Shown here in pieces: positions 44,201 through 62,893 of a stretch of DNA of 64,000 bases (position 1 is its first letter; every line of letters begins with the position of its first letter). Made by a program: the position numbers and the translations under genes. Under the pieces are notes generated by a model that was given only the letters and a program-made list of their open reading frames with translations, made no database searches and was not told the origin of the DNA. Origin of the DNA: Patiria pectinifera (lineage: Eukaryota > Echinodermata > Asteroidea > Valvatida > Asterinidae); NCBI GenBank assembly GCA_029964075.1, contig CM057142.1:6339770-6403769 (forward strand). The letters run 5' to 3'.

Positions 44201-45651
44201 CTTAAGTGCTGCCCTAAAAAAGAATTAACAATCCTGAAAGGATTTTTGTGTGTGTGTGTGTCTGAGTGTTAACCTTTGCATGCCATCATTATCGATGTAG
44301 CAAATGACGTCAGACGGAGTGGTAGTCAAATGTAGCTTGATTAATCTAGGTGTAATTAATATGTGCATCAGGGAGTCACGCAAGAACTTATTTGTGTTGG
44401 GTGTGCTGGACATCACCATGGCATTACTGAGAATTATTAATTATTTTGGTACATACATGTACTTTGGCGTCACCATGTTGTTTCTCGGTCACAGGCATTA
44501 ATAGTACTAATTACTTAATGTATGTGTGTGTGGTGCTATGGCCTTAAGAAGAACAGAAATTTTGTTTCACTCAAAGAGATCCCATAATTAGGTATGGCAG
44601 TTTGGGGGTCTACCCGATGTTCCCCTATAGCTATGTTCCCCAATACCGATGTTCCCATCCTCCTTATTAGGAGTTAGGGTAGTTAGGGTTAGGGGGTAGG
44701 GTTTTCGGGAACATGTATATTGAACATCATCATAGGGAACATAGGTATGCACCAGGCAGTTTGTTTTGTTTTAAACAGCACGATCGCAAATTTGTAACCA
44801 AACAAATCTTTTAACTCTGGATTAGGATGTAAAAATCAATAATGGATGGTTTGGTTGTGAAAAAGCACCACTGTCCGATTTTGTTATTGAAAGTGCTAGC
44901 AACAGAATCCACTTACCAGACCTAAACAAAATCTGAAATTTTAAGCATTTAAGTTGTCTAGCAATGTTGTTGTTTCACACAACAAATATGCACAAAAAGC
45001 GAACATTCCTGTTTCCTTGTAAAGTAAAAAAAAAGCCACAAAGATTGCTGCTGATTGGAAAGGGTCTATACTATATTATTGATGTTCTCATTTTAGTCTC
45101 TTAACCAATTTCCTGCACGTTAGTGGAGTGCCGTGGCCTCATGGTCTGAAGTATATTTTATGGTCTGCAGGTAATTCTGCAGGTTGTGGGTTCGAATCCA
45201 GCCTGGGGTTATGGTGCGTGTGCCATTGGGCAAGGCACTTTGTCACTCATTGCTTCTCCCCACCTAGTAAATGGGTACCTGTGAGGGCAGAGATGGTTAT
45301 TGTGGTTGATTTTAGCTGCTTTGCGCCCAAATGGTAGCATCGAGCTGTATACTCCCCAGGGAGCTGAGATTGTCTTTGGAATGTTTCATTGGTCCAGTTA
45401 GCAGGGTAATAATGATGTAGCGCCTTCAGCACCAAAACTGGTGGAAACTTGGTCTTTATAAATACACATTATTATTATTACTATGTTCTCCCAGGTTTCT
45501 GAAAGCTGTTCTTCGATATGCTGAGAACCTCAACAGTCTGACCAGTCCGGAGAAGAACAAATGGGACGAATGCTGCGGCCTGACTGACTCACTGCTTCAA
45601 CAAGTCAATTCCCACTGCGCAAAGCTAAAAAAGGCACAACCAAGCACATAA
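20042..45651 (+). CDS. ERMARD: ERMARD, ER membrane-associated RNA degradation protein (C6orf70/DUF4209 family; whole gene, 16 coding exons)
   Basis: Joined exons are 20042-20207, 21189-21322, 22194-22295, 22623-22715, 23521-23618, 24579-24721, 25598-25712, 26221-26323, 27406-27432, 28205-28276, 30069-30236, 31069-31337, 31930-32004, 32749-32913, 43069-43182 and 45495-45651. All introns are GT-AG and the total is 2001 nt (666 residues plus TAA); the human protein is about 678 residues. Similarity runs end to end from MTTCLSP to the C-terminal NKW..... segment. Two R-x4-H motifs stand out, RNILWH (182-187) and RDHISH (367-372); this spacing is the HEPN ribonuclease signature and both are present in human ERMARD as I remember it. 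Hydrophobic stretches at about 200-215 and 585-597 fit ER membrane association. Human ERMARD is linked to cortical malformation (periventricular heterotopia). The molecular activity is not shown by sequence alone. Confidence 0.95.
21189..21322 (+). CDS. ERMARD: ERMARD coding exon 2
   Basis: Completes residue 56 and encodes through residue 100: [20 protein letters not shown] and onward to HLEWTGNTE. It aligns with the human LLGPVCEAVHSHFLSL block. The acceptor is AACTGCAG|AAGC and the donor GAG|GTATGA. Confidence 0.93.
22194..22295 (+). CDS. ERMARD: ERMARD coding exon 3
   Basis: Encodes residues 101-134, starting [11 protein letters not shown] and ending [10 protein letters not shown]. The ERALGD ending is shared with the human protein. 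The acceptor is CCTTGCAG|CTTTTC and the donor GAC|GTAAGT; phase 0 at both ends. Confidence 0.94.
22376..22545. repeat. rearranged tRNA-derived SINE fragments
   Basis: A minus-strand head (GGTTTGAACCTGC at 22388-22401) is truncated and followed by a plus-strand head GGGCTGGATAGCTCAGTTGG at 22471. Located in ERMARD intron 3. Confidence 0.72.
22623..22715 (+). CDS. ERMARD: ERMARD coding exon 4
   Basis: Encodes residues 135-165, [20 protein letters not shown] through LGENA, matching the human VFLL..K.CPFLLRDLL segment. The acceptor is CTTGCAAG|GTTTTT and the donor GCA|GTAAGT. Confidence 0.93.
23393..23460. repeat. fragment of the CCTCC-rich MITE family
   Basis: Contains CCTCAATCCTCCAAAATCCTCC and a partially inverted GGAGCATGGAGG. 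Only the end of the element is preserved. Confidence 0.5.
23521..23618 (+). CDS. ERMARD: ERMARD coding exon 5: first R-x4-H motif
   Basis: Encodes residues 166-197 and two bases. It contains [19 protein letters not shown], nearly identical to the human block and the most conserved part of DUF4209 proteins. R182 and H187 form the first HEPN-like R-x4-H pair. The acceptor is TTACTTTAG|ATTACT and the donor AAAG|GTTTGT (phase 2). Confidence 0.96.
23660..23775. repeat. GACTGAGTCACT short tandem repeat
   Basis: Irregular tandem repeats of GACTGACTGAGTCAC and CCCCGAGTCA words in ERMARD intron 5. The repeat begins about 40 bp after exon 5. Confidence 0.75.
24039..24327. mobile_element. MITE with GGGCCTTATTCACGAGT ends
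   Basis: The left end GGGCCTTATTCACGAGTCGG and right end CCAACTCGTGAATAAGGCCC are inverted copies over about 23 bp. The target duplication is at most AT. A degraded relative ends near 54120 (GCGTGAATAAGGTC). Confidence 0.83.
24579..24721 (+). CDS. ERMARD: ERMARD coding exon 6
   Basis: Encodes residues 198-245 plus one base, with a hydrophobic run [17 protein letters not shown] (about 199-215) that may contact the membrane. The acceptor is TTCCCCAG|GTACAG. The donor CCCAG|GTCGGT is chosen over the stronger-looking GTAAGG four bases later because only the first keeps frame and gives FPEICNDDV, aligning with human FPDVTYEV. Confidence 0.88.
24976..25095. repeat. short inverted-repeat element
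   Basis: GGCCCCTTCAATGGTGAAA on the left is the near-inverse of TTTCGCCATTGAAGGGGGCC on the right, with a 75-bp spacer. A MITE-like structure in ERMARD intron 6. Confidence 0.65.
25193..25410. repeat. 12-bp minisatellite (CTTGTGATTTGG)n
   Basis: About 18 copies of a 12-bp unit alternating CTTGTGATTTGG and CTGGTGATTTGG. The minus strand reads as an artificial Asn-His-Lys-Pro repeat. Located in ERMARD intron 6. Confidence 0.92.
25598..25712 (+). CDS. ERMARD: ERMARD coding exon 7
   Basis: Encodes residues 246-283 plus two bases: [20 protein letters not shown], then [17 protein letters not shown]. The MLPY block is shared with human ERMARD. The acceptor is TTGACTTTAG|AAATC and the donor AAAA|GTAAAT. 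Confidence 0.94.
26221..26323 (+). CDS. ERMARD: ERMARD coding exon 8
   Basis: Encodes residues 284-318, with [20 protein letters not shown] and [10 protein letters not shown]. It matches the human [28 protein letters not shown] region closely. The acceptor is TGTTTTTAG|ATATGG and the donor GAA|GTGAGT. Confidence 0.95.
26513..27015. mobile_element. mariner-like MITE M1 (TA-flanked, CAGGGTGAGTCA ends)
   Basis: TA at 26511-26512 and 27016-27017 flank an element starting CAGGGTGAGTCAAAAAAAGCG and ending with the inverse CGCTTTTTTTTACTCACCCTG. The arms extend about 230 bp, so the whole element folds on itself. No transposase frame. Located in ERMARD intron 8. Confidence 0.92.
27406..27432 (+). 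CDS. ERMARD: ERMARD coding exon 9, a 27-nt microexon
   Basis: Nine codons, SEYFTTFDE (319-327), corresponding to STALYTTFDQ in human. The acceptor is TTCTTACAG|TCAGAA and the donor GAG|GTAAAA. Phase 0 on both sides means skipping it would keep the frame. Confidence 0.88.
28018..28172. repeat. hairpin MITE
   Basis: AAATATGTGCT...TTGGAGTCT...CTGATAATTA is mirrored by TAATTATCAG...AGACTCCAA...AGCACACATTT, leaving a few bases between the arms. It ends 32 bp before ERMARD exon 10. Confidence 0.78.
28205..28276 (+). CDS. ERMARD: ERMARD coding exon 10
   Basis: Encodes residues 328-351, [20 protein letters not shown] followed by ETYM. It is less conserved in sequence than its neighbours but in phase on both sides. 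The acceptor is GATTTCTTAG|ATGCTG and the donor ATG|GTAAGG. Confidence 0.88.
28921..29570 (-). pseudogene. 3' end of a non-LTR retrotransposon (LINE), decayed
   Basis: The minus strand encodes fragments typical of the C terminus of an endonuclease-reverse transcriptase LINE. These include [34 protein letters not shown] (29228-29310), and a C-terminal CCHH-type finger [20 protein letters not shown] ending at 28921. At least one frame change separates the blocks, so it is 5'-truncated and inactive. It lies antisense within ERMARD intron 10. Confidence 0.85.
30069..30236 (+). CDS. ERMARD: ERMARD coding exon 11: second R-x4-H motif
   Basis: Encodes residues 352-407. It contains [16 protein letters not shown], matching human EGPRIRDHLSHGEINL. 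R367 and H372 form the second HEPN-like R-x4-H pair. The acceptor is GTTTTTCAG|GAGATG and the donor CAG|GTGAGA. Confidence 0.96.
31069..31337 (+). CDS. ERMARD: ERMARD coding exon 12 (largest)
   Basis: Encodes residues 408-496 plus two bases. The first part ([20 protein letters not shown]) aligns with human YSSRCHPVFQLKKQVLSCEE. The second half, rich in Ser, Gly, Asp and Thr, looks like a disordered linker. The acceptor is GTCTTCTTAG|ATACCC and the donor AGAG|GTAAGA. Confidence 0.93.
31440..31660 (-). repeat. repeat matching the nested element at 14430-14600
   Basis: Shares, in inverse orientation, GTGAACTGGTTAA, CGGGTTGAAGCC-like text and paired CGAGGCCGGAAATAT / CAGCGACCCGCTCGC words. Located in ERMARD intron 12. 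Confidence 0.72.
31930..32004 (+). CDS. ERMARD: ERMARD coding exon 13
   Basis: Encodes residues 497-521 plus two bases: [20 protein letters not shown] then GKTLF. The acceptor is TTCAATTCCAG|TGCAAT and the donor TTCAG|GTAATT. It is phase 2 at both ends and fits the neighbouring exons. Confidence 0.9.
32180..32686. mobile_element. mariner-like MITE M3 (TA-flanked)
   Basis: TA at 32178-32179 and 32687-32688. The ends CACGGTGAGTCAGAATGATC and GATCATTCTGACTCGTCCTG are inverted, continuing into TGGAACC / GGTCCA. The outer 10 bp resemble M1 but the interior is unrelated. It ends about 60 bp before ERMARD exon 14. Confidence 0.87.
32749..32913 (+). CDS. ERMARD: ERMARD coding exon 14
   Basis: Encodes residues 522-576 plus two bases, with [18 protein letters not shown] and the basic helix [19 protein letters not shown], equivalent to human LRHRQWVERTLRSRQRQNY. 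The acceptor is GTCAGCTCAG|GTCCC; the alternative AG six bases upstream opens a wrong frame. The donor is ACTG|GTGAGA. A 10.2-kb intron follows. Confidence 0.93.
32976..33090 (-). repeat. tRNA-derived SINE head
   Basis: The minus strand reads GATATCTCATTTGGTAGAGC ... GGTTCAACTCCCACT, a tRNA-like head with poor stems. It starts about 60 bp into ERMARD intron 14. Confidence 0.65.
33261..33931. mobile_element. mariner-like MITE M2 (TA-flanked)
   Basis: TA at 33259-33260 and 33932-33933. The left end is AAGGGTGAGTAAAAAAAAAG and the right end TTTTTTGACTCACCCTG, with roughly 210-bp inverted arms (CAAAGAATATCACCATTTAAA in one arm, TTTAAATGGTGATATTCTTTG in the other). No coding capacity. Confidence 0.9.
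36111..36620 (+). mobile_element. TTAA-flanked MITE, copy E
   Basis: TTAA at 36107-36110 and 36621-36624. It is the most diverged copy, with changed termini, but keeps the internal landmarks. The internal near-palindrome is at 36444-36471 (CCAACGATGGTCTGCCGACC then ATCATTGG). Confidence 0.78.
37016..37300 (+). repeat. tRNA-derived SINE, well preserved
   Basis: The head GTGGTTATGGTGCTCGACTC has a perfect B box GGTTCGAACCC (37078-37088). The body contains TGGGCAAGACG and AATGGGTACCTGTGAAGGTA, and the tail reaches TATAAAGTGTTATATAAGCA. Internal Pol III boxes look intact. Confidence 0.85.
38571..39088 (+). mobile_element. TTAA-flanked MITE, copy B with a perfect internal palindrome
   Basis: TTAA at 38567-38570 and 39089-39092. 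Ends are AGGGAATCAT... and ...GTATTCCCT. A perfect 32-bp palindrome at 38899-38930 has arm TTCCAACGGTGGTCGG. No coding frame. Located in ERMARD intron 14. Confidence 0.92.
40207..40330. repeat. inverted-repeat element abutting copy C
   Basis: AAGTGAAAGGGTGTAAATTT at 40207-40226 is matched by its perfect inverse at 40311-40330. The right arm ends at the TTAA of the next element. Confidence 0.85.
40333..40845 (+). mobile_element. TTAA-flanked MITE, copy C
   Basis: TTAA at 40329-40332 and 40846-40849. Ends are AGGGAATATACAACATTTGC and ...TCTTCCCT. The internal palindrome at 40674-40701 is imperfect (CCAACAATGGTCGGCTGACC then AACGTTGG). Confidence 0.9.
41678..41716. repeat. (TG)n microsatellite followed by a G tract
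   Basis: About eleven TG units run directly into roughly sixteen G residues. Confidence 0.95.
41937..42190. mobile_element. MITE with CTCAATTCATATCCGG ends
   Basis: The left end ATCTCAATTCATATCCGGAC and the right end CCGGATATGAATTGAGAC are inverted, continuing into GAGTTCTGAACAAGTTG and its inverse CAACTTGTCCAGAACTC. Located in ERMARD intron 14. Confidence 0.85.
42588..42682. repeat. 51-bp tandem duplication
   Basis: TTCTGAACTTGTCGA...AACAGTTTT...ATAAATTGGATAT occurs twice with a 51-bp offset; the second copy is slightly shortened. Confidence 0.8.
42822..42920. repeat. 98-bp hairpin element
   Basis: GAATAATTTCAT..GGTGACAGATG..ATGT is mirrored by ACAT..CATCTGTCACC..ATGAAATTATTC around a 35-bp loop. 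It lies about 150 bp before ERMARD exon 15. Confidence 0.8.
43069..43182 (+). CDS. ERMARD: ERMARD coding exon 15: C-terminal membrane segment
   Basis: Encodes residues 577-614 plus two bases. [18 protein letters not shown] matches the hydrophobic human segment LSLILLLIALELVNIHAV, a predicted C-terminal membrane helix. The acceptor is TTAATTGCAG|CGTACC and the donor TCAA|GTAAGT. Confidence 0.93.
43360..43985. repeat. GCGCAA-rich fold-back repeat
   Basis: The left end GGCGATTTCACGAAAATTGA... is roughly mirrored by CACTGTTTTGTGAAATTGGC at the right. The interior is rich in TTGCGCAA words on both strands and contains a short tandem array AGCAGCACAACTT at 43587-43640. Termini are approximate. Located in ERMARD intron 15. 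Confidence 0.65.
44605..44754 (+). mobile_element. telomere-core mini-element, subfamily 2, copy T1
   Basis: A 150-bp element with a TTAGGG-like core (about 44671-44702) between arms of repeated ATGTTCCCC words and their inverse GGGAACAT. It is flanked by the 9-bp duplication GGCAGTTTG (44596-44604 and 44755-44763). Its ends are GGGGTCTACC and GGTATGCACCA. No coding capacity. Located in ERMARD intron 15. Confidence 0.88.
45123..45480 (+). repeat. tRNA-derived SINE immediately upstream of ERMARD exon 16
   Basis: Head with B box GGTTCGAATCC (45189-45199); body with TTGGGCAAGGCACTTTG, AATGGGTACCTGTGAGGGCA and TCGAGCTGTATACTCCCCAG; (ATT)n tail. It ends only about 15 bp before the exon 16 acceptor, so its AT-rich tail forms part of the branch-point region. 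Confidence 0.88.
45495..45651 (+). CDS. ERMARD: ERMARD terminal coding exon 16
   Basis: Encodes residues 615-666 and TAA at 45649-45651. It contains [20 protein letters not shown] and NKWDE, aligning with human [25 protein letters not shown]. The acceptor is TTCTCCCAG|GTTTCTG. Five bases after the stop, AACAAG|GTAAGG looks like a good donor, so the 3' UTR may be spliced. Confidence 0.94.
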
Positions 45652-45656
45652 ACAAG

Positions 45657-47384
45657 GTAAGGAGTGGAACTTGAAGTTTAATATTGGGTTTATCATCCAG
45701 ACTTATTTTTTTAAATGAAGGAGGCAGCCCCCCCCACACCTATTTTTTTTCCCCAAGCTGGCAGATTTTCTAGGACATAGATGGATTCTTCTATTTTCTT
45801 GATTCTTTTGCTGATACAAAATTGTGTCCAAAAGAGCCGTCACCCTTTCTACATAGCTACAATTTTGTTGGAAACAAATCTAAAGACAATATGTTGACAA
45901 ATTTTGCAAAATAATTTGCAAGTGTATGATTTAGAGAAAAAAAAATCCAAATAAAAATCACTGAAATAAAGGAGGCGGGCAGGAAAAAGGAAATGGGCGG
46001 GGACGTTGCAGTTGACGTCAAATCTGAACGTTTTAACTATGAAGATTACTTCGCTTGAAAATTTCAAGTGAAGCAATCTTTTATCTTTTTTTTAAATAGC
46101 AGCCTTCAGATCTCATTTTGTTGCCAATATATACTATGGCGGACGTGTTGAATTGCTGAGTTTAGTCCTTTTTTGGGGAAATTATCCAATTTTAAAGTGA
46201 TGTATAACATTCTCAGTGATGAGAATGTATTTAATTTCATTTGATATATTGCAGAGGCCCAACCCAGATTTCAAACAGTGTTTGCCGCAGGCAATTATAC
46301 AATCAGACTTATGTACAATGAAGTTTGTGGCAACCGTTTTGGGGGCATGTTGTATCAAATGAAAATTAGAGCCAAGTTATTGCCCTGTGTTCTTGTTTTA
46401 AACAATGTAATCAATTAAAGATGTGTTCCCAATTCAATACAAAAGTTTTTCACTTTGGAATGAGACATCAATCAAAATAAGTTGGCCAATGTTAAGTTAT
46501 TGTATTATTACATACAAGTTCCAATAATTGGTTGCCGGACAATAATTCCATACTCGCAGGCTAGGCTGGTTCCCGCCCCACAATCAGTATCCATAATGTA
46601 CGAACTGGTACCTAGTCTGCTCGCAAAGCAGATCAGTTGTTTGTGCCAAAAAACCTCTTTCAGGGGGTTGCAGATGTCCAAAAAAGGAAAAAAGAGTTTT
46701 TTTGTTGATGGCATAAAACATGCCAGTGGAAAATGTACTGATAGAAAAAAAGCGAATGTAGGGAATGCAACTTTAAGTTCCATTAATTTTGAGCTAAAGC
46801 TTTATAGTTAGGCTATTAATAGTAACAAATAGCACTAAACTTTCCTTGTGCCTTGTGTATTTATAACTGCTTTTTTTCTGCTTGGATTTTGTGGTGTGTA
46901 TTACTCTTTTTTTCCCATGGAGGTTTTCTGCTGAAAAAATGTGGCCAACATCTTGGAACTCTCATACCTAAGGGGGTGTGTTTTGATTGTTTTTAAATCC
47001 TTGGCCTCATTTTGTATATTTTCATTGAGTGGATGAAAAGTGCCTCAGGTAGTACTTTGCAGTGAACGAGATGGTGCCAAGTTTTGTGTGTTTTTGTTTT
47101 CAAGAAATTGCCGGCAAATTCGGGCAAATTCAAGCATGAAATTTGATTAACTTTTGATGGACTACTGTTATAATTGATTACATCATAAGTCTGGTCACAA
47201 ACCCTGTCATAAGTCATGCAGTCCTCTAAAATCTCAGAGACAAAATACGCATTTGCAATCATTTTTTCGTCACTTAAGTTTATAGATCAATATTTGAATA
47301 CCACTAAATTAAAATTTAAAAAATATGCTCAACAAGTAGGTGGAAATTGCTGTCAAAAGTTGGTATCCTTCTTTTTGCACCACC
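45657..47384. other. region downstream of ERMARD, no gene seen
   Basis: Probably 3' UTR sequence or an intron within it, then AT-rich DNA. Frames of up to about 109 codons (for example 46482-46811) lack recognisable domains or splice support. A CACCCTGTA end of a mariner-like repeat lies at 47381-47389. Confidence 0.45.
45950..45970 (+). promoter_or_regulatory. candidate ERMARD polyadenylation signals
   Basis: AATAAA occurs at 45950 and again at 45965, about 300 bp after the stop. They would apply only if the candidate 3' UTR donor at 45656 is not used. Confidence 0.25.
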
Positions 47385-47390
47385 CTGTAC

Positions 47391-47544
47391 GGTGACTGCT
47401 CTATGTTCCGACACCCCTATGTTCCGACAACCTAGATATTGTGTTACTCCCGGTTAGGGTTAGGGTTAGGGTTAGGGTTAGGGTTAGGAATAGGAATATG
47501 TGCAGTCGGAACATAGGGGTGTCGGAACATAGAGGTGTAACCCC
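47391..47544 (+). mobile_element. telomere-core mini-element, subfamily 1, copy T2
   Basis: A 154-bp element. The left arm CTCTATGTTCCGACACCCCT... (47399-47428) and right arm (47505-47534) are a perfect 30-bp inverted repeat, each arm holding two direct CTATGTTCCGAC words. Between them lie six exact GGTTAG units (47452-47487). It is flanked by CTGTAC on both sides (47385-47390 and 47545-47550). Confidence 0.93.
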
Positions 47545-48369
47545 CTGTACACTGCAAGAATCAATGCGGTAGTTGAAATAATCAAGTTCACTTTTGGAAA
47601 AGGACCCTGCGACATTCTTCCTGGCTGTTACACCCCTTTACTGATGGTTGATGAAGACCCAGGTTCAAGATAAATACAGTGCAAAGGCCTGTCTATTCCT
47701 GTGAATTGTACAGGATAGTGACTCTGCTCTGGCTTCTGGGGATTTGGCTCGCTCCTGAGCCGTGATTCATCCAAGGAGCATCTCCTTCATTGCCTCATGC
47801 ATACAGGAGCATTGACATCAACCGGAGAGACTTGGTGAGCAAATCACAAGACAGAGTGATGCATGATCCTTGGATCTCAACCAGGCCGTTGACATTGCGT
47901 ATGCACGAGTGAAGGGGTGCCAAGAGTTCACGATGTAATGTACTCCCGAGACAGTCTGAAATATGAGCGACAATTTCTGTGTGCTTATTGGAACAATTCG
48001 GTCGATGCCCTGTTAATGTAGACTCAGGAGTGGGGTCGGAGAAAGCTATGGAGCCTGAAAAATTGATTTTATAAACCTACTTGTCTACGTTCTCCATGTT
48101 TGATGGTGACATTGTTACAGATATTGAACCCCAAAAATATGCAAGTTCATACTCCATGTGGATATGAATAGGAAGCAATTAGACTTCAATTTAAGCATTT
48201 GTGGTGAAATTCAGCAACGTTTGAACACGATAGAGTGTTGTAAATTCCCATATGAATTTGCTGTCCCATTAACACCACTTTAAGGAGGAATATTTTATGA
48301 CATACAGTCTGGCTATAAATAAACAAACCAAAACCAAAACACTTTTTTTTCTTCATACAAATCCTTTTT
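47545..48369. other. non-repetitive intergenic sequence
   Basis: No gene, SINE or MITE recognised. The stretch 47570-48060 has higher complexity and GC than its surroundings, with no convincing open frame; a conserved noncoding element is possible. Confidence 0.35.
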
Positions 48370-48373
48370 TTAA

Positions 48374-48898
48374 AGGAAATATACAACATTTGCAAACATC
48401 GAAAAATAAAACTACCACGTTTTTACGAAATACCTTACTAGGATGTTGGTAAATGACAGTCTAAAGCATCCTGTAAAATGATGGCACCTGGTGTAAGTCA
48501 TTTTCAAGAAAATGGTATTTTTGTATACATTTCCAACGGTGGTTGGCCGACCACCGTTGGAAAAACCGAACTATTTTTCAACTTCTGCTCCAACTTTACC
48601 CTTTTTTTAGTCCACATTTTGTTTGCTTTTGGTTACATGTTCATGAATGGGTGCAGGCCAGCTAGACTGGTTCCTAATTACCTTACAATCTTCAGGCATC
48701 TATAAATTGATTCATTTTATCTTTAGTGGAGTCTAGGAACCAGACGACTTGAACATTTTTGGTTTTTCTTGGTTTTTCCAGCATTTTCGAACACAAAACT
48801 TCAAACATGTCAGTGTAACAATATTTGATCTATTATACTTACCCCTCAAATAGTTCATTTCTGAAAAGTACAGCAAAAGCCAATGATGTACATTCCCT
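48374..48898 (-). mobile_element. TTAA-flanked MITE, copy D
   Basis: TTAA at 48370-48373 on the left; the right flank is degraded (GTAA). The inverse of copies B and C. The internal palindrome at 48531-48562 differs from perfect by one base (TTCCAACGGTGGTTGGCCGA...). Confidence 0.9.
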
Positions 48899-50022
48899 GT
48901 AACATTGCTGGTTTAAAATTGTTTACATTTACTGTCCTAATAACTGACGAAAATCCAAAATGGAAATCAATGAATCTGTTCAAAAGTATAAATCAGGTGT
49001 TTGTTTGCATTCCTTTGCCGGTGATACATGTAACTCTGCCTACAGAGCATAAATTCCCTAGAATTACAAGTATACCTTGACAATAAATATGCAGTTAGGT
49101 ATACCCTTACTGAACGTTAGTGAGAAGGCATGTCTGGATAGTTTACCAACAAGTTCGAAATTGCATCAAACCTGAAAGTGCTCATGGTTCAATGGCCTGA
49201 ATTGCCCTATTTTCGCTGTCTGTTTTGCTATTAATCACAATGCAGTTTGCATAGAATTGTCATTGTTAAGATAAACAAACTTTGCACCCCTTGGAATAAT
49301 TAACAGACTATTGTTTTTGTTTCTTTTGATTTATTTTTGGTTTTGGGTTTTGGTTGAGATTTGTCTGAGCCATTCCTCCTCTGCCGAAAGCCCAACACTC
49401 GCATGAAAACTTCATTGAGCACCCAGATAAAAATAATTTGACTCCGTCATTTCATCGCTGGATGTACATGTATATTGCTTGTGGCAGTTTTTGAGCTTAA
49501 CTGTGCTTATAGTGCATAAATTCAGCTCAGTGTTTTTTTTTTTTTTAGCTTAACACCCTGACAGTGGATGGCTCTATGTTATCCAGAGAGACTCCCCAGA
49601 AAAGTGAATTTCCTGTAGAGGCATTTGTTCTAGGTCAATATACACTGCAGTCTGTCACCGCAATAAGACCATGGTTGATTAAATTGACCCTGAATGTAAT
49701 ATCGATGTAAGCACTTAAAAAACCCCAGGACAGTCTACTAGCTGGTTCAGACAAGTAGAGAGTCCAGAATTTGTTTTACCCTGTCTTTGCTGTAATACAT
49801 GTGAATTTGCGCATCCGTAACTAAGAATTTTTTTTAACCGCGTAATCCCTTTCAAATTTTTTTGACATCTTTTAGTGGAGAATTTTTTTTTTTTCAGTTG
49901 AGGACAAAAGTTAAAAGTTTACTTTGATCTCACATAGGTTATTCATAACTGAATTGTCACAGGTCTTGTATTCTGAGTATGCAGTAAATCCTGCCAATTG
50001 AAAGCAAAGTAATCATAATTAG
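48899..50022. other. intergenic, no gene seen
   Basis: AT-rich sequence with a poly-T run near 49535 and a GC-moderate patch at 49550-49760. No splice-bounded exon or named repeat recognised. Confidence 0.35.
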
Positions 50023-50572
50023 GCCCTTTCACACGCTCCAAATATCTGTGTTGGACCCAGTTGAACCCAGAGATTTGGAGAACCCCGTTGATACTCCACC
50101 ATGGCTTTTACAGGGGTCCGGCGCTGTACATGGGTGCAATTCAACCCAGGGTCAAGAGGCTCTAACCAGGTAAAAAATCCAAAATCTACAGCCGAACGGT
50201 GTACATGTTTAAACCAGTGTAAGTCTGAATGGCATGCCTTGTCAACCCGTGTTTGATGGGACTAGATTCCGCTCACACTGGACCCGTGTTAATATCACCA
50301 GGGGTATCCACTCCGTTCACAAGTACCCCCTCACCGGCAAAGAAAGTACAGTTGGGGGTGACCGACCGACGCCATCTTGCCTGACTGCAATTTTGCCGCG
50401 ACGCGCCCCCGTACCACTGCGTGTACACAGTACAAATCCCCTGGTGTACGTGCGTCACACACAAGGAACGGTGCGCGTCAACCAGCTAAATGTCCCGCCC
50501 ATGCTAGGTAAAAGGGCGCCCTCCTTCATTGGCGCACTGAGCCCATAGGCAAGATGACAGTGTGAAATGGTG
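50023..50572. repeat. possible MITE with CCCTTTCACAC ends
   Basis: Begins GGCCCTTTCACACGC and ends ACAGTGTGAAATGG, a short inverted pair. The interior is rich in AACCCAG/AACCCGTG words, and similar words occur at 52050-52190. A frame at 50234-50548 has no domain and is taken as repeat-derived. Confidence 0.45.
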
Positions 50573-51076
50573 TATAGGTGGAGGTACAATGTACATCAAC
50601 TTGACTCTCTTAGATCACATACCACAAAGGGAGCAGCACATATGTGTGTTGGTGTAACCTTTTCATCAAAAGTCCACAGCCAAATCAGTTTTATCCCGAT
50701 GAGGTTGTTTTTACTTAAACGCAAACATATCCCAAGTCCCATGCATAAAACATGCATGAAATATGCATTTTGAGCAATCCCAAGCTTCTACACCTGTCAC
50801 TACAAAAATTGCAGTTCATCACGAGGTTAATGGCAAGCTGTAACCCCTGTGTTGGCCTGGGTTTACAAACTCATTCCCTTTCCCCCTCAAACTTGGGTTA
50901 AAAAAACCCAAACATTTGCCATCATCCAAGGTTTTTTTTGTTAACCCTTGCTTGTGAGCAGGGTTCAAGGCACATTTGGGATCATTTGCATTTATCCCAA
51001 AAGGCAAAAGGACCGTAACCTACCAAATTATTGTCAAAATCTTACTTGGATTAAAGATTGTACTGGTACTAAACAC

Positions 51077-51640
51077 CAGTGTTGTAGTCGAGTCCTCCTC
51101 ATCCGAGTCCGAGTCCGAGTCCTTGAGCAAAGGACTCGAGTCCGAGTCCGAGTCCTTGTCAATTTTTGATGTCCGAGTCCGAGTCCGAGTCCGAGTCCTT
51201 GAAAAAAGGACTCGAGTCCGAGTCCGAGTCCTTATGTATCAAATTCAAGTCGCGGTTCACCAATACTATATTAACGTTTTCAAAATGTCACTATCAAATG
51301 TCAGGTGATAGAGAAGGGGTAATGGTTTTGGCTGTATGCACTATGCAATGCATTCATCGGCAAGTTATTTTTGCGAGCGGCAGAACTGCGGAATTCGGTT
51401 CCACAGCAAAACCAAATCAAGGTGAAAGACATAAAATAATTGAAATAAAACACCTAAAAAAGACCCGATTTTGCCGGACTCGAGCCGGACTCGAAGCCGA
51501 GTCCTCGAGTCCTTGGGGTCCGAGTCCGAGTCCGAGTCCGAGTCCTTGAGCAAAGGACTCGAGTCCAAGTCCGAGTCCTTGAAAAAAGGACTCGAGTCCG
51601 GACTCGAGTCCGAGTCCCGAGTCCGAGTCCTCCAACACTG
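51077..51640. mobile_element. hAT-like non-autonomous element H1 filled with GAGTCC repeats
   Basis: Flanked by the 8-bp duplication CTAAACAC (51069-51076 and 51641-51648). Ends are CAGTGTTGTAGTCGAGTCC and GGACTC...TCCAACACTG. About half the element is tandem GAGTCC with GGACTC inversions, in two blocks (51100-51235 and 51475-51630) around a unique middle. Ser-Glu or Gly-Leu repeat frames in it are artefacts. Confidence 0.93.
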
Positions 51641-52314: not shown

Positions 52315-52690
52315 CAGTTATTACCCCTGTTCATCAGGCCATGAGACCAATTTTCTGCAGCCGAGATCAGCGCAATCTGGTCTCTACCTTCATAGGTACC
52401 CATTTTTACTCCTGGGTGGAGAGAAACAATTGCAGTATAGTGTCTTGCCCAAGAACACAAGCACAATGTTCCCTGTCAGTGTTGAACCCATGTACTGTGG
52501 CAGGTGACTGCTCTATGTTCCGACACCCCTATGTTCCGACAACCTAGATTGTGTTACTCCCGGTTAGGGTTAGGGTTAGGGTTAGGGTTAGGAATAGGAA
52601 TATGTGCAGTCGGAACATAAGGATGTCGGAACATAGAGGTGTAACCCCGTGGCACATGGGTCAAACACTGTAACTGGACCACAGCGCTCC
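52315..52690 (-). repeat. tRNA-derived SINE split by a telomere-core element
   Basis: The minus-strand inverse of the SINE at 37016, with ATGAGACCAATTTTCTGCAG, GGTACCCATTTTTACTCCTG and TTGCCCAAGAACACAAGCAC. The tRNA head is interrupted at 52502 and resumes at 52655 (CATGGGTCAAACACTG). Confidence 0.85.
52503..52648 (+). mobile_element. telomere-core mini-element, subfamily 1, copy T3, nested in a SINE
   Basis: A 146-bp element nearly identical to T2 with four GGTTAG units. Starts GGTGACTGCTCTATG and ends GTGTAACCCC. Flanked by GTGGCA on both sides (52497-52502 and 52649-52654). Removing one flank copy rebuilds a continuous SINE head, so insertion is directly shown. Confidence 0.94.
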
Positions 52691-55122: not shown

Positions 55123-55360
55123 CAGTGGCGCACCCAGGATTGGGTTGGGGGTGGGGGCCTCAATTTTTTTTTCACAAAATGTTGTCCTAAATTTTTGGCC
55201 GCAGAAAAAATTGGAGTTTTTTTCGGGGGCTATTTTGACGTTGGTGGCGCCACTTACACCCCTATTATACTACTCGAAAATAGGCCACATACATATCACC
55301 AAGGTCAAATCTCGGGACTAAAAAAAAAAGTAAAAAAAAAAGAAAAAAAGTGAGCCACTG
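55123..55360. mobile_element. hAT-like MITE H3 (CAGTGGCG ends)
   Basis: Flanked by the 8-bp duplication GGGATGAG (55115-55122 and 55361-55368). Ends are CAGTGGCGCACCCAGG and TGAGCCACTG. The interior is A/T and G rich, without coding capacity. Confidence 0.87.
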
Positions 55361-55720
55361 GGGATGAGTATTCATGCAGAAAACCGATATGGTTGATTTA
55401 TGTAATTGTGAAATCTTGGATTCTCTTTTTAGTGTTTATTTTTGTAAATCAATAAACACAACAAGAAAACCCCAAAACAGAAATTGGCTAGTAGCACTAT
55501 ATGTTCTGTTCCTGAATAGACAGAAATCTATATATATAGGGGATGGGTATGCCATAGAAAACCTGAATTGTTTATTTATGTACATGTGATCGTGAAAGCG
55601 TGTTTTTTAGATTTTCTTTTCATGGCTTATTTTGATTTAAAAAACCCAAAATGTCTGGTAAGCCCTATATATTCTGCTCTTGAACAGACATAAATCTAAT
55701 TTCATTAATGGCAAGTTTCA
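55361..55720. repeat. old tandem duplication, ~178-bp units
   Basis: Unit 1 (about 55361-55538) and unit 2 (about 55539-55720) share GGATG.GTAT, GAAAACC.....TTGATTTATG-like text, ATATTCTG.TC.TGAA.AGACA.AAATCTA and CCCAAAA. They are clearly diverged. Confidence 0.7.
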
Positions 55721-56459
55721 ATTTTTTTTAATGAACATGTACATGTATAGTTTGTCTTTGCACTGCCTGTTTAGACTTTCATACATGTGTGTCATTCGGA
55801 GATGTCTCAAAGAAAAAGGTGTTTGAATGAAGTTGAAACTAATGGAACTATATCTGCCTCTCGCATCATCTCAGAGATGCATGCATATTCTGGTCACGGC
55901 CTAGCACCATGGCTCTATTCCTGCACATGATCCAATGTTTGTCAAAGCCGAGCGGGCTCTGAAAAATCCTCCAGGGCCCTTCAACCTAGTTCTTGTAATT
56001 AAAACTGGAGGCTGCGTGATGAATAGCGAGGAACAGAAATATGTGCAAGGCCTCCCCATGCTGCCTGGAGAGGTTTTGGTTTTTCGGAAGGTTGAAGTCT
56101 AAGTTGAAGAATTTTACCATTTTGTGTTCATTGACTATTGTCTGCAAAATTTTTCATGCAGCTTTTCTTTGAAAACACTGTATAATTCTTATAAAGCTTG
56201 GAATTTGCTCTTTTTTGGTTAGACTTCCCATACCAGTTTCAAGCCTGGTTTATCCCCTCACATTGAATTTCATGTGATTTAGAGCATTGTGCCAATATTT
56301 CTTTTCTATAAAGTATAAAGTAAAAGTTCTGTTTGGCATTAAAACAAATCCCCAGCGAATAGTGATAATGTATTTCAGTTAAGAATTTAAGAGATTGGCT
56401 AATAGCATTGCACAAGGAAAATTTCCACGTTCCATAGAAAAGCCCAATAAACAAATAAC
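55721..56459. other. intergenic; a complex GC-moderate patch
   Basis: 55840-56090 is unusually complex and balanced in base composition relative to its flanks, with no open frame of note. It could be a conserved noncoding element. Nothing else recognised. Confidence 0.3.
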
Positions 56460-56860
56460 ATTTTTATGCCCCGCGGCGAAGGCGGAGGGGCATACTGTTT
56501 CCGCCTTGTCCTTCCGTGGGTGGGTGGGTGGGTGGCTGGGTGGGTGTGTGTGTCCGGATAAATCTTGTCAGCGCGATAACTTGAGAAATACTTTCCATGT
56601 GAACTTCAAATTTGGTTTGTGGATTGTTCTTGGTAATCCTAAGAAGCCTATTGCATTTGGGGCCAAAAGGTCAAGGGTCAAGGTCATAGTGGCTAAAACA
56701 AAAGAAATTTTGTCAGCGCGATAACTTGAGAAATTCTTCACATGTGAACTTCAAATTTGGTTTGTGGATTGTTCTTGGTAATCCAAATAGGCCTATCGCA
56801 TTGGGGGTCGAAAGGTCAAGGGTGAAGGTCACAGTGGCTTAAACAATAAAAATCTTGTAT
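56460..56860 (+). repeat. GCCCCGCGGCGAAGGCGG repeat with two 145-bp tandem units
   Basis: Starts with an inverted GCCCCGCGGCGAAGGCGGAG block and a GGGT microsatellite (56516-56548). Two 145-bp units follow (56566-56710 and 56711-56855), each with TGTCAGCGCGATAACTTGAG and GTGAACTTCAAATTTGGTTT. Repeats of this style are, from memory, abundant in several marine invertebrate genomes. Confidence 0.85.
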
Positions 56861-57957
56861 TTATTCTGAGATCATAGGGATTAGGGATTAATTCATATAA
56901 AACCTACAGAAGACACTAATGCTGTCAATGAACGTTCCATGTGACCAAGGTCTGGTACGTGTAAGTTGATGTTAAAAGAGTGGTGTTATGTCATGGGAAC
57001 AGTCACGGTTGCAGGGCATTTGTGTTTGTAAACACACCTGACTTGTTTTTAATAAAAAAGTAGACAGTCATATATATATTCTACAGTACTCCAGTCCACT
57101 ATTTTGTTTTCCCCGTGGTCTTTTTCTTATATTCCTTTCATTCTGTATACGGACATGTGATCAAACTCTCAACTAATGTCAGGTTTTTTTGTTTACCCTC
57201 ATAATACCCAATACAGTTGTAGAAATACATGTACATTTCCCCTTGTGCATTAAAGCAGTAAAAGAAAAGGTTTGAATCCAAAGAAAACATCCATTCATGT
57301 CTCCAAAATGCTTTCATACAAAAAAAAAACATGCACACAAGCACACTTTATTTTCCTAATGGAGTGGAAATGAATGAAACAAACGGAGTAGAAAGTGTCT
57401 TTGTTTTCCCATCCATTAGTGACGCATGAATAAAAGCATTGAATCGATTTTGAATCTTTTTGTAAAGCCTACCGTCTGGTCTCCCCAGTATATGTAATTA
57501 GTACAGCTCACTCCGGAGTATTGTCTACTTGAATAGAAAGCATTCATCTCCTTTTGTTCTCTTTATCATCAACATTTATTTCCAATTCCAACAGACAATG
57601 AGAGGTATAGACAAACAGAAATATAAAGAAGAATGTGAATTGGAGGCACTGCCAAAGGAACAAAGCTTGTGCATGTCAGGCATGCAAATTTTCCTCGGAT
57701 CAGCTGATTTCCTCGTTTTTCACTTCACACTTATGCCATTAAAAATTGAAAAACACTGCACAAAGTCTTGTAAAGATTGGAGTTTCCTCTTTTTTGGTTT
57801 CTTCCAAGTTGCATGCCTGGCATGTAGGAGTGCCCATACAATACAAACATCAAAATTGACAATACGCAAAAAGTACATATTAACCCTAAACAAAATCCTA
57901 TCTTGTGAATAGTTAATGTGGTACCCGCTGCTATGTTCATCAGATTCGAACTAGCCA
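56861..57957. other. intergenic, no gene seen
   Basis: Contains a short inverted pair GCATGTCAGGCATGCAAATT (about 57670) and TTGCATGCCTGGCATGTAGG (about 57809) and AT-rich text. The frame 57529-57912 shows no domain. Confidence 0.35.
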
Positions 57958-58159
57958 ACCGATCCCGTTAGCTCGGTGGTTGAGTGGTAAGACATCTGCA
58001 CTAGAAGCAGGAGGTCGTGGGTTCGAGTCCCACCCGAGTGATTTTTTCCAACTTTCGCTCGGGAGGCAACAACGGGAGTATACAGTGTTTATACGTCGGT
58101 GAAGGGCAAAACCTAATTTGATTTACATCACCCCGACGCAAAAATCCCATCTTGTGAAT
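57958..58159 (+). repeat. tRNA-derived SINE with a GTCGGTGAAGGGCAAAACC tail
   Basis: The tRNA-like head has an anticodon-like arm CTGCACTAGAAGCAG (a TAG position would read Leu), B box GGTTCGAGTCC (58020-58030) and a good T stem. The 5' acceptor strand does not pair with CCGAGTG, so it is not a working tRNA. The tail matches the hairpin repeat at 13421-13555. Confidence 0.78.
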
Positions 58160-58572
58160 AACCCTAACCTTCCCAAATCCTCCAAAATCTTTTTTGCAAA
58201 ATGGAGGATTTTGCAGGATTGAGGCTATATGGCAAAAGTGTTGCTGATTTCAGAGGATGCACTGTGTCAAGGTCTTGGGCCGCACCTTGTGTTGATTAAG
58301 TTCAGCCGTGCACAAATTTACGCCTATATTATACTTGAAATCCACTGCCCTGCTCCAGGATGTCACTGGCCCTGCCTTAACATATTGACAGTCATTTCCT
58401 GGAGGACTTTGCAGGATTGAGGCTGTGGTCACCCCTCCAAGGACCGCATTTGAGAAATAACGGAGGATTTTGCAGGATTGGGGTTGCTTGCTATTTTTTA
58501 CATGGAGGCAGTTGGAAGATTTTGCAGGATTAAGGTTACATCCTAGCAACAAATGCCTAGGGAGTAAGGGTT
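58160..58572 (-). repeat. CCTCC-rich MITE, copy R4 (longest)
   Basis: The inverse of R1-R3. Ends are AACCCTAACCTTCCC and CTAGGGAGTAAGGGTT. All internal landmarks are present. It directly abuts the SINE tail. Confidence 0.88.
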
Positions 58573-58858
58573 TTGAAGAAACAAAAAGTACACGCACAAT
58601 TCCAGTGGTTGATCCAACTGCTAAAATAACAGTAGTAAGGATGGATATAAAAGTAAAGAATAAATAAACCATTACAAAACCACTCACTGTTGAAGAAGGT
58701 AAAAGTTCAGATTACGTTGAAAACTGAATTAAGCGCTTGCTATTCCTTAAACATTGAGGTAATCCATTCCAGTGAAGAGACCCCGAGTGTCTAATGCTGT
58801 GCTTAAAGGCTGATGTCCTGAACTTGGAAATATGCACTAGGGAAGATGACCTAGTATT

Positions 58859-59475
58859 CAGTGTTGTAGTCGAGTACTTTTTTCCAAGTACCGAGTAGTG
58901 CCGAGTACTTAGGTTGCCGAGTACGAGTACGAGTACTTGTACCTCCGAGTACAAGAACGGGTCTCCGAGTACCAGTACTCGTACTTCCGAGTACGAGTAC
59001 GAGTACTTCCGAGTCCGAGTATGAGTACTCGCATTTCCGAATATGGCCACTACGGCTGGTGGTTCATTGTGTGTAATTGGCCCAGGCCCAGTCAGACCGT
59101 TATATACCGGTACAGACCCACTCACGGCTAGCTGTAATGTGTTTGTCCGGACTTGCACAGGAGAAAATCAGGTAATCTCGATTTCTCAACAACAAAAAAA
59201 TCAACCATTTCAAACTGAAAGTATCGATAAAATAAGGCCATGGTAAGTGAAGCTATAACATTTCCCCCCCCCCCCCCGAGTACTGCCATTCGAGTACGAG
59301 TACTGTAATGATCAAGTAGAATTTCGACATGTCGTGTACGAGTACTTTGCTGCCCGAGTACGAGTACCGTCATTTAGTACGAGTACTTTGACATTCGAGT
59401 ACGAGTACGAGTACTCCAAAAAAGTACTCGAGTAGTACTTGAGTACGAGTGCCGAGTACGAGTACTACAACACTG
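58859..59475. mobile_element. hAT-like non-autonomous element H2 filled with GAGTAC repeats
   Basis: Flanked by the 8-bp duplication CTAGTATT (58851-58858 and 59476-59483). Ends are CAGTGTTGTAGTCGAGTAC and GTACTACAACACTG. Tandem GAGTAC blocks lie at both ends around a unique middle that contains a C tract at about 59264. Its termini match H1, but the filler hexamer differs. Confidence 0.93.
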
Positions 59476-59483
59476 CTAGTATT

Positions 59484-61734
59484 ATAGCTGTGTACATTAA
59501 CTTTTTGTTGCAGTGTTGTTGTTTTTTTTACATTTGTGGCTCATTATTAGGTTGCTAAGAGAAAATTCTGGCCTACCTAAGCAGTTTTTGTTTTGCCTTG
59601 TCTGGCCTGATGGAAAACTGATTTCTTCTTTAGACATATTTTATGTTTTTTAGATTTTTTTTTTTTTATTCTGTTTGAATTGATTTTTAAGTATTTTGTA
59701 CTGTACTATGTTTTCCCCTTCATTCACTACATTGTAATACATTTTATTTATTTCCTGGCGAACCTATGTAGTGCCAGGGCGGTACATGTACATGTAGCTA
59801 CACGCAGGGTGATTTTAGGTGGTACAGGGAGTAATAGGTTTAAGAAAACCTTGAAAACCTTGAACTGAAATAAAACTGTCTATCTTGTTCTAAGTGTCTT
59901 GTTTTTTGTAACAAGGAAAAAAAATCCACTCTTGACCAAAAGGCTAATACTAAATTCAACATAGAATGCACTCAGTGGACATTTGGCAGGAGCATGCTTT
60001 ACAATTCTTCAAAAACTGCCATTTTCCACAACCCTTGAAGCAGAAGCACCCATTAGCGTAAAGTGTAGGCCTATTCTCCACATTTGGTAATCAGATTTTT
60101 ATCTCTCTGAAAATTAAAGTGTCTGCCTTGAAGTTCAGATTGCTGTGAAATTAATGATTACACCTAAAGCTTTTTTGTGCTTTGTGATTTCAGTGCACGG
60201 AAAAAAATCCTTGGAAATCCATTCTCTCTCTTGCAATATTCTGTAGTATTGATTGACGTGCAGATTGTTTTGATGGCTGGTTCAGGCACATTCTAGTCCC
60301 AAGTTCATTAGAGGCCCGGTGAGGGAGGGATGTCAATCAATTTTTCGAAGAAGGTGATTTGATCACTGATTTAAGGGAAAAAGGATGGGGAAATTCTTCA
60401 TTTCTGTTCACACAGATGAGTAGTTGGAACATTCAAAATCAAGTTGTAGTAATAAGGGTAAGTTTGCCTTTGCACCACGTGACAAATCTCTTTTGTGAGT
60501 TGGCTAGGTTCTGAAAAGAACCAGGGGAATCACTGATCTCCTGGTTTGAAAAGATCTGGAAAACCCCTTGGTCATACTGAGCAGTACAGAAATGTGAAGC
60601 TACGCACTGGTCAATGTGACCGTAAGGTCATGGCTAAATTCTGCTAAATGCAATTCAAAAATCTGTCAGATTCATCAAAAATCTGCCAAATTCACTTGAA
60701 GTACTTGAAATACACTATAAACACTTAAAATCGCATGCATATGTTGTGGTATTGCCTTAATTAAGGTGCAAAGTACATTATACATGTAAACAAAAAAGAT
60801 GTTATGAAATGTTAATGAAAAATTTCAGGCAAAACACGGTTGCGTCACCCAAGTCCGGTTCCCAGAGAACCTCAGCACCTGAAGACCAGCCACCCTATCA
60901 CATTAAGCAAGGGTTTGAAAAGTTAGAAGCTTTTTTAAAACATATTTACCATATTTTCCCCAAATATGCTGTTTTTTGGGGGGTCAAATATCCATTTTTC
61001 CGAATTCTGCCAGATATCTGCCAAAAAAATCCATTCTGTCAAATTTTCTGTCAAACTTGTTTTTAACATAAAAATCTGTCAAAGTTAGCCGAAAATCGGC
61101 TAAAACTGTTCAAAATAATTAAAACGTTCTAAATAATTAAAAAAGGGTCGCCCCTAACAGAAACTTTAATTAATTAAACATAAATTGTAATTAAAATATA
61201 TGTTGCTGCCATTTTAAGTTTGGTTCTTTAACCCCAAAATAATCATTTGTTGGGTAAATAGTGTCCCTGTGAATTAAATAAGATATCTTTCTTTACAAAT
61301 CTATTGTTCTTGGAGTGGTAATATGGCAGACGGTGACTTCACTTCTAGCAGCTAATGGGCCATCCAGATTTTTAAATCATTTGGGGGAACTCAAACCTTA
61401 GATTGAACCCTTTTTTGCTGCTAATGAGATATTGTGACACATGTGTGTGCCATTTTGTTTTCATCATCGAAATTACGATACAATTGTGCCCTACTTTTTA
61501 TTCCTCATCTGGAGAAACTAGCAGGCAGTGGTGGGAGGAGCAATGATTGATGCTGCGCTCTCATTGGTTGCTTGCATTATGCTGTTGCTGTACTGTGGCA
61601 AGCAGAGGCAAATCATCTCTTCAAGCCAGTCAAGCCAAACATTATGTTTCTCTGAATTTTTGAGAATTAGACAAATATTCCCAGAGAGCTTTTTTTAAAT
61701 TTTTTTTTATTATTATTAATAATTTCTGGTACTG
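59484..61734. other. intergenic, no gene seen
   Basis: AT-rich sequence. The patch 60230-60600 is more complex. 60660-61060 repeats ATCTGTCA/ATCTGCCAAA words. No exon-like frame recognised. Confidence 0.35.
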
Positions 61735-61990
61735 AAACCAAGGATTCCTCAAAAGCGCCTCTAGGCACTGTAGCTCGCAAGCCTGAAGAAACCTGTAGAG
61801 AGAAGACTAAGAGAAGAAGTTACAGTTTTAGAGGTGGGAGGAAAACCCCAGAATGATATTCTAGGAAAACCCCACAGAATCAGGTAGAGACTGAAAAGCC
61901 AATCCACATATTGGCCCAGGTGGAATTCAAACCCCGGGACACAGCGGTGGAAGGCGAGGAAAGTACCGCTACGTCAACCTGACTCCCCAC
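61735..61990 (-). repeat. tRNA-derived SINE
   Basis: On the minus strand GGGGAGTCAGGTTGACGTAG leads a tRNA-like head with a B-box-like GGGGTTTGAATTCC (61922-61938). The body resembles the SINE at 10225-10440. Confidence 0.72.
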
Positions 61991-62752
61991 TTCTGTTTGA
62001 AAACATATTAGCAATAATGAAGGTGATTAAACTTTATAAACAATGCAGAGACTACAATGTCAACATTTGCAGAGAAGAAGGCTACTCGGCTGATGATTTG
62101 CATATCTCCTTATTTTTTTTCTCAAGTTGTTGTTCTATTTGGCAGGGTTGGAGCTCAATGTACATGTATATAGCTTTTTCTTTTCCAGATGTTCCTTTTT
62201 TTTTTGCAATTGTAATGGACAAAGCCAGACATATGCTAGCCACTTGACCTCCATTGCCAGCTAGCTCACACTTGTGCACATTCATATAAAAATAGTCGAA
62301 ATTCATGCCATGCAGTCTGCACTCATTACGAACACATTGTCGTAAAGGTTAATATCTACACATTTCTATACAAAACCCCCTACCACGGGGGATCGTGTAC
62401 AAAATATCAGAGGCTTATTTATTACTCCCCCGATCATGCTCAATTCAATTCGGCAGCGACCGCAAGCCCATTCTAAAAAATTTGTTAAGACAAGATCAAG
62501 GTACCAACTTTTACGACAACGTGCTAGTAATGCTGTAACAAATTACAGAGGGCATAATAAATAGTTATATTCAAACTCGTATGATGGAAGAATAAACAGT
62601 CATAATCGATGGAAATAGAGCTTAAAGCTTGATTGAAATAGATTCTTTAACTGTGGAGCCATCCTGAATCATCCCATGCACATGCTCCAATAACAATGTA
62701 GGCCGACATGGCTGGCATAGAGAAAAGTTAACTTTTTCATCTGAGTTTGCAT
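61991..62752. other. intergenic, no gene seen
   Basis: Contains TACATGTA words and a relatively complex patch at 62390-62700 with several AT-rich transcription-factor-like words. No gene or clear repeat. Confidence 0.3.
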
Positions 62753-62893
62753 GGGTGCCATACCTATGTTTCCCAAAACCTATGTTCCCCAACCCTAAAC
62801 CCTAACCCTAACCATCTAACCTTAACCCTAACCCTAACCCTAACCCTAACCATTTTGGGGAACATAGGTATTGGGGAACATCTGGTAGACCCC
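62753..62893 (-). mobile_element. telomere-core mini-element, subfamily 2, copy T4
   Basis: A 141-bp element with CCCTAA repeats (about 62791-62850) between arms of CTATGTTCCCC words and the inverse GGGGAACATAGG. Its inverse starts GGGGTCTACC and ends GGTATGGCACC, matching T1. Flanked by GTTTGCAT (62745-62752 and 62894-62901). Confidence 0.92.

What the first reader, a model, noticed from the sequence alone, without database searches (positions are those of the whole stretch)
44605..62893. A family of tiny elements with a telomere-repeat core between inverted CTATGTTCC arms
Four copies (44605-44754, 47391-47544, 52503-52648, 62753-62893) share one plan: short ends, arms made of two or three direct CTATGTTCC words, a (TTAGGG)n core, then the arms inverted. 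Each is bounded by a direct duplication (GGCAGTTTG, CTGTAC, GTGGCA, GTTTGCAT). Seen directly: a mobile cassette that scatters telomere-type DNA through a chromosome. Inferred: the core could be bound by telomere proteins or extended by telomerase. This is the strongest candidate here for something undescribed.
Basis: partly seen in the sequence, partly recalled or inferred. Interest (0 to 1): 0.78.

Follow-up and report, generated by a model that had tools for sequence, protein, structure and literature searches.

The report
Tiny transposons carrying telomere-like repeats
These are very short "jumping" DNA pieces that probably move with a borrowed enzyme, and each carries a few copies of the chromosome-end repeat TTAGGG in its middle; short transposons that carry simple repeats are known, but one that spreads the telomere repeat is an unusual case.

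Summary
The four copies are real. Copy 3 interrupts an older repeat whose uninterrupted relative lies in the same window. There are two related subfamilies. B (copies 2, 3, L002) is young: 0-2 substitutions outside the core, yet cores of exactly 5, 4 and 3 hexamers. A (copies 1, 4 and three more) is older. A blind 200-kb sample of one other contig held 2 more copies, so thousands genome-wide are plausible but not counted. The seven perfect (TTAGGG)≥2 tracts in the window and that sample all lie inside these elements. Best reading: a non-autonomous cut-and-paste transposon, perhaps Merlin (5'-GG ends, 8-bp duplication), with a hitchhiking TTAGGG microsatellite. MITEs carrying microsatellites are known; the telomere-type core is the unusual part. 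Genome-wide counting and the search for an autonomous partner could not be done: the genome search answered 1 of 49 requests.

The parts
44605..44755 (+). copy 1, subfamily A; end drawn for an 8-bp duplication (44754 if 9 bp)
44597..44604 (+). left target-site duplication of copy 1, GCAGTTTG (right copy at 44756-44763)
   Evidence: 8 of 8
44674..44701 (+). degenerate TTAGGG-type core of copy 1, approximate limits
47391..47542 (+). copy 2, subfamily B
47383..47390 (+). left target-site duplication of copy 2, CCCTGTAC (right copy at 47543-47550)
   Evidence: 8 of 8
47454..47483 (+). core of copy 2, five perfect TTAGGG units
52503..52646 (+). copy 3, subfamily B
52495..52502 (+). left target-site duplication of copy 3, CTGTGGCA (right copy CCGTGGCA at 52647-52654)
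   Evidence: 7 of 8
52564..52587 (+). core of copy 3, four perfect TTAGGG units
52363..52483 (+). left part of the older dispersed repeat that copy 3 interrupts
37084..37204 (-). relative of that older repeat without the insertion (88% over 121 bases); the alignment of the joined flanks runs on across the junction
62753..62893 (-). copy 4, subfamily A
62745..62752 (+). left target-site duplication of copy 4, GTTTGCAT (right copy at 62894-62901)
   Evidence: 8 of 8
62793..62851 (-). core of copy 4: perfect TTAGGG runs of two and four units among variants, approximate limits

Best explanation
The four elements are non-autonomous cut-and-paste DNA transposons (MITEs). A transposase made elsewhere recognises the 5'-GG ends and the ATGTTCC words (mostly 16 bp apart) of both arms, cuts the element out and inserts it at an 8-bp staggered cut, which leaves the 8-bp duplications. 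The (TTAGGG)n core is a passenger microsatellite: it was captured or grew between the arms and is copied along with the element, so each insertion seeds a short internal telomere-type tract, which then gains and loses whole hexamers. Shown: inverted arms, 8-bp duplications, an uninterrupted relative of one site, two related subfamilies, near-identical B copies with cores of 5, 4 and 3 units, and copies on other contigs. Inferred: mobilisation in trans, the words as transposase-binding sites, slippage as the cause of the unit steps, and the superfamily (Merlin, about 0.5, from 5'-GG ends plus 8-bp duplications; hAT or another 8-bp superfamily otherwise).
For: Structure and excess over chance. 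Inverted arms: in copies 2 and 3 the 38-bp ends match each other's complement at 87-92%, and as single strands copies 2, 3 and 4 fold far better than shuffles (z -9.6, -6.5, -4.5). 8-bp duplications in 8 of 8 copies examined, 4 exact and 4 with one mismatch, against 0.34% and 3.4% per random placement. Uninterrupted relative of the copy 3 site, aligned without a gap at the junction after one duplication copy is removed. Two further copies in a blind 200-kb sample of C21, plus L001 and L002 from C21 and C928, found by arm words alone and both carrying a core. A and B arms align with their words at matching distances from the end (0 of 2000 shuffles score as high). The core reads TTAGGG from the GGGGTCTACC-type end in 5 of 5 A copies and from the GGTGACTGC end in 3 of 3 B copies. 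B outside the core: 2 substitutions in 120 aligned bases (copies 2 and 3) and none between copy 2 and L002, with cores of exactly 5, 4 and 3 units. Merlin features, 5'-GG ends and 8- or 9-bp duplications, from passages of PMC8101967.
Against: No transposase or longer element with these ends is known here: the searches for it did not complete. Copy 1 folds only weakly better than shuffles (z -1.4, 20 of 200 as good). The A-B arm scores only just exceed the best of 2000 shuffles (11 against 10, 12 against 11). L012 reaches 7 of 8 only with one end shifted by two bases, and L006 sits in a C-rich stretch where a match is easier. The copy 3 site is compared with a paralogous relative, not an allele, and at the 8 duplicated bases that relative (CCACAGCA) matches CTGTGGCA at only 4 of 8. 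The genome-wide abundance rests on 2 copies in 200 kb of one contig.
Confidence: 0.88

Rival explanations
1. The core is functional for the element: telomere-repeat-binding proteins of the host, or a G-quadruplex formed by four or more TTAGGG units, help the element to move, to be replicated or to avoid silencing, so the core is kept by selection on the element.
For: A core is present in both subfamilies and in 8 of 8 copies, in one orientation relative to the ends. L001 and L002 were found by arm words alone and both have one. The two B copies in the window keep perfect arrays of 5 and 4 units.
Against: Several A cores are degenerate (copy 1, L001, L006, L012), and L002 has a TTAAAG unit. Inheritance plus slippage predicts the same. 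No binding or activity data.
Confidence: 0.08
2. Each tract arose separately when telomerase or a telomere fragment healed a chromosome break, and the flanking words are secondary.
For: Telomerase-linked break repair has been proposed in mammalian genome evolution (title of Nergadze 2007, seen in the reference list of PMC6410037).
Against: Shared arms on both sides, 8-bp duplications and an uninterrupted relative without deletion are not expected of independent repairs. Such a repair could still explain how the first element got its core.
Confidence: 0.02
3. A difference about origin only: the core did not come from a telomere but grew in place from a TTAGGA-like palindrome between the arms, and the resemblance to the telomere is coincidental.
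For: Two A copies (L006, L012) have ATCCTTAGGATTAG at the left edge of the core, a short palindrome that could seed TTAGG-type units.
Against: The hexamer is exactly the telomere unit of many animals (recalled), and copies 2 and 3 carry pure TTAGGG. The host's own telomere repeat was not determined.
Confidence: 0.3
4. Fold-back element or Helitron-type element rather than a MITE moved by a DDE transposase.
For: The arms contain direct repeats, as in fold-back elements (recalled). Satellite-like arrays carried by non-autonomous Helentrons are described in oyster (title and abstract start of PMC7492417).
Against: Helitrons leave no target duplication (recalled), while 8 bp recurs here. The arms are short and the ends fixed.
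Confidence: 0.06

Closest known systems
MITEs with hitchhiking (GTCY)n microsatellites in Lepidoptera (Coates 2011; seen only as cited in PMC9659126)
   Same: A short non-autonomous inverted-repeat element that carries a microsatellite to new sites.
   Different: There the unit is GTCY; here it is the telomere-type TTAGGG, set between arms of words mostly 16 bp apart. The original paper was not read.
Xmix/Xstir and miDNA4 MITEs of Xenopus (Hikosaka 2004, Scalvenzi 2014; seen only as cited in PMC9659126 and PMC6947457)
   Same: Tandem repeats riding on a MITE.
   Different: The review lists them as satellite sources and miDNA4 as Tc1-mariner; their repeat units and ends were not compared, as the original papers were not read.
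Merlin superfamily of DNA transposons (PMC8101967, passages)
   Same: 5'-GG termini, inverted repeats from 24 bp, 8- or 9-bp target duplications, imperfect terminal repeats known.
   Different: No transposase has been linked to these elements here.
Interstitial telomeric sequences (PMC6410037, passages)
   Same: TTAGGG tracts away from chromosome ends; transfer by mobile elements is named there as a possible origin of large heterochromatic tracts.
   Different: Here the tract is an internal part of a defined mobile element with target duplications.

Membership tests
MITE | short element without coding capacity | tested here: met
   131-218 bp in the eight copies
MITE | terminal inverted repeats | tested here: met
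MITE | target-site duplication of constant length | tested here: met
   8 bp: 4 exact and 4 with one mismatch of 8 copies
MITE | many dispersed copies | tested here: inconclusive
   4 in the window, 2 in 200 kb sampled from C21, 2 more found by pattern: dispersed, but no genome-wide count
MITE | shares its ends with an autonomous transposon | not tested
   searches unanswered
Merlin | terminal 5'-GG-3' | tested here: met
   15 of 16 ends in the registers (sequences); the exception is the 3' end of copy 1, whose limit is uncertain by a base or two
Merlin | 8-bp or 9-bp target duplication | tested here: met
   criterion from PMC8101967
Merlin | linked to a DDE_Tnp_IS1595 transposase | not tested
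   PF12762 search unanswered
hAT | 8-bp target duplication | tested here: met
   (criterion recalled)
hAT | ends beginning with a CA/TA-type motif | tested here: not met
   15 of 16 ends begin GG (criterion recalled)
Helitron | no target-site duplication | tested here: not met
   8-bp duplications present (criterion recalled)

The most novel reading that the evidence does not exclude
The TTAGGG core is not a passenger. The element gains from it, through host telomere-repeat-binding proteins, G-quadruplex formation or telomerase, and through it supplies essentially all internal telomere-type tracts of this genome, so a transposon family sets where telomere proteins can bind inside chromosomes.
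Probability: 0.08. Interest if true: 0.75.

Novelty: new variant of a known kind. Interest (0 to 1): 0.42.

Why it matters
Short internal telomere tracts are usually explained by chromosome fusion, slippage or break repair. Here a transposon with a clear insertion signature accounts for 7 of 7 perfect (TTAGGG)≥2 tracts seen in the window and in a blind 200-kb sample (5 of the 7 are in the window, which was chosen for them). If that holds genome-wide, internal telomere signals in this organism should not be read as fusion scars. It would also give a natural set of datable tracts in which growth and decay of telomere repeats away from chromosome ends can be measured.

Tried and rejected
Chance: rejected by the shuffle counts and the duplication control. 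Variable target duplications of 6 to 9 bases: replaced by a constant 8 bp after more copies were compared. Independent break-repair tracts: disfavoured by shared arms, duplications and the uninterrupted relative of the copy 3 site. Relatives in viral contigs: three exact patterns, 0 matches each; the tool says that records near this genome may be left out. A pattern with a fixed spacer matched nothing in the window, not even the copies, so it was badly written. Pfam scan of 4 of the 14 listed reading frames gave no match above a curated cut-off, so host identity stays open. Literature: ten searches, three of which listed only part of what they found (20 of 25, 15 of 103, 12 of 17), and passages of ten papers. 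I saw no description of a MITE with a TTAGGG core in these listings and passages, but no paper was read whole, most subscription papers are not held, and Luchetti 2015 (termite MITEs; seen only in reference lists) and Satovic 2013 (clam MITEs, not held) were not read, so this is no proof of absence.

Full report
What was checked. The window is 64 kb of G000, an unnamed assembly of 613,548,705 bases in 1020 contigs (contig C14). The four reported copies were read directly. CTATGTTCC occurs 11 times against 0.47 expected, and TTAGGGTTAGGG with up to one mismatch 17 times against 0.31 expected. Of these, 11 of 11 words and 16 of 17 telomere-type matches lie in the four copies; the match at 9893 does not.

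Two subfamilies. Copies 2 and 3 (B) are 93.5% identical over their length, gaps included. Copies 1 and 4 (A, copy 4 inverted) match each other mainly in the arms. The single answered genome search, for two abutting words, gave one more A copy (L001, contig C21) and one more B copy (L002, contig C928). That search favours copies with joined words, so these two are no random sample; but it did not ask for a core, and both have one. A blind sample of 20 evenly spaced 10-kb stretches of C21 (200 kb), of which parts of L012 and L015 read N, held 2 A copies (L006, L012). Profiles of A and B run over the window and the 22 loci found no further copy below E = 0.05; the best other hit, at window 8768-8850, has E = 0.053. 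Two in 200 kb would mean about 6000 in the genome, but with so few the 95% Poisson range, worked out by hand, is roughly 700 to 22,000, and one contig may not represent the rest.

Anatomy. A: GGGGTCTACC, then ATGTTCC-type words mostly 16 bp apart, a TTAGGG-type core, inverted words, and a right end GGTATGCACCC or close to it. B: GGTGACTGC, two words 16 bp apart, CTCCCGG, the core, TTAGGAATAGG, inverted words, GGTGTAACC. A and B left arms align over 41 bases without a gap, with words at equal distances from the end; the score is reached by 0 of 2000 shuffles but only just exceeds the best of them (11 against 10), and the right arms behave alike (12 against 11). Within each subfamily the two ends are clear inverted repeats (27 for A and 32 for B against a shuffle maximum of 9). 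As single-stranded DNA, copies 2, 3 and 4 fold far better than shuffles (z -9.6, -6.5, -4.5; the other strand of copy 3, -7.4), while copy 1 does not clearly do so (z -1.4). The core reads TTAGGG from the GGGGTCTACC-type end in 5 of 5 A copies and from the GGTGACTGC end in 3 of 3 B copies.

Insertion signature. For each of the eight copies the best duplication within four bases of the drawn ends was sought at lengths 6 to 10. At 8 bp four are exact (copies 1, 2, 4, L002) and four match at 7 of 8 (copy 3, L001, L006, L012); at 9 bp only copy 1 is exact. In 20,000 random placements in the window with the same freedom, 0.34% gave 8 of 8 and 3.4% gave 7 of 8. L006 and L012 are the weakest: the first is C-rich, and the second needs one end shifted by two bases. 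Copy 3 lies inside an older dispersed repeat whose relative at 37084-37204 (minus strand; 88% over 121 bases) lacks the element. Joining the flanks without the right-hand duplication gives an alignment with no gap at the junction (score 307); keeping six of its eight bases needs gaps and scores 301. This is a paralogous empty site, not an allele, and at the eight duplicated bases the relative (CCACAGCA) matches CTGTGGCA at 4 of 8.

Age and core. Outside the core, copies 2 and 3 differ by 2 substitutions in 120 aligned bases plus a 2-base indel. Copy 2 and L002 have no substitution but a 2-base and a 7-base indel. Their cores are exactly 5, 4 and 3 hexamers, one hexamer of L002 being TTAAAG. 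So B moved recently, and the core length changes by whole units while the rest hardly changes. Pairs of A copies are 71-79% identical over the longer alignments (92-157 bases), and most have degenerate cores. Of the perfect (TTAGGG)≥2 tracts, 5 of 5 in the window and 2 of 2 in the 200-kb sample lie in a copy. The eighth tract in that listing is in L001, which was fetched for its arm words.

Interpretation. Constant short duplications, inverted ends, an uninterrupted relative of one site and near-identical copies define a cut-and-paste non-autonomous element. The regularly spaced words are likely transposase-binding sites (inference). The superfamily is open. Merlin elements have 5'-GG ends and 8- or 9-bp duplications (PMC8101967, passages), which fits: 15 of 16 ends begin GG in the registers. 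hAT shares the 8 bp, but its usual CA/TA-type ends (recalled) are absent. The core is most simply a hitchhiking microsatellite. Whether it came from a telomere or grew from a TTAGGA-like palindrome, as the left core edges of L006 and L012 hint, cannot be decided with eight copies.

Known kinds. Microsatellites and satellites riding on MITEs are described: (GTCY)n MITEs of Lepidoptera, Xmix/Xstir and miDNA4 of Xenopus (all as cited in PMC9659126, passages). A review of internal telomeric sequences names transposition by mobile elements as a possible origin of large heterochromatic tracts (PMC6410037, passages). I saw no MITE with a TTAGGG core in the listings and passages of ten searches, but no paper was read whole and much of the literature is not in that library.

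Limits. There is no genome-wide count, no autonomous partner, no host name and no population data. The genome search answered 1 of 49 requests, and further stretches of the genome could not be fetched.

Noticed in passing
window 2020-2144, 5882-6013, 22362-22542, 57970-58041: tRNA-like stretches (Rfam tRNA at 2062-2129, 5897-5969, 22470-22542, 57970-58041); the first three lie in a dispersed repeat family, probably a tRNA-derived SINE.
   Followed up: no
window 51090-51630 and 58904-59436: clusters of GAGTCC-type and GAGTAC-type repeats.
   Followed up: no
window 16495-17709, 26511-27017, 33274-33920: long inverted-repeat pairs (arms of 126, 188 and 194 nt, 98, 84 and 88% complementary), possibly other MITE or fold-back families.
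   Followed up: no
window 847-1041: tandem array of a 50-bp unit, 3.9 copies, 97% matches.
   Followed up: no
L012:3547-3604: this A copy contains an extra self-complementary insert of about 55 bases in its right arm, perhaps a nested insertion.
   Followed up: no
L002:1501-1520 and L001:1485-1532: arm words vary in number or spacing between copies: L002 lacks 7 bases between its right-arm words, and L001 has four right-arm words.
   Followed up: partly
window 17755-18237 (-): open reading frame of 160 aa that by eye resembles the start of a mitochondrial membrane protein; Pfam gave only sub-threshold matches to unrelated families.
   Followed up: partly
L004:1457-4154 (-) and L020:4703-9706 (+): reading frames that by eye resemble a Polinton-type DNA polymerase (L004) and a LINE reverse transcriptase (L020); not searched.
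   Followed up: no
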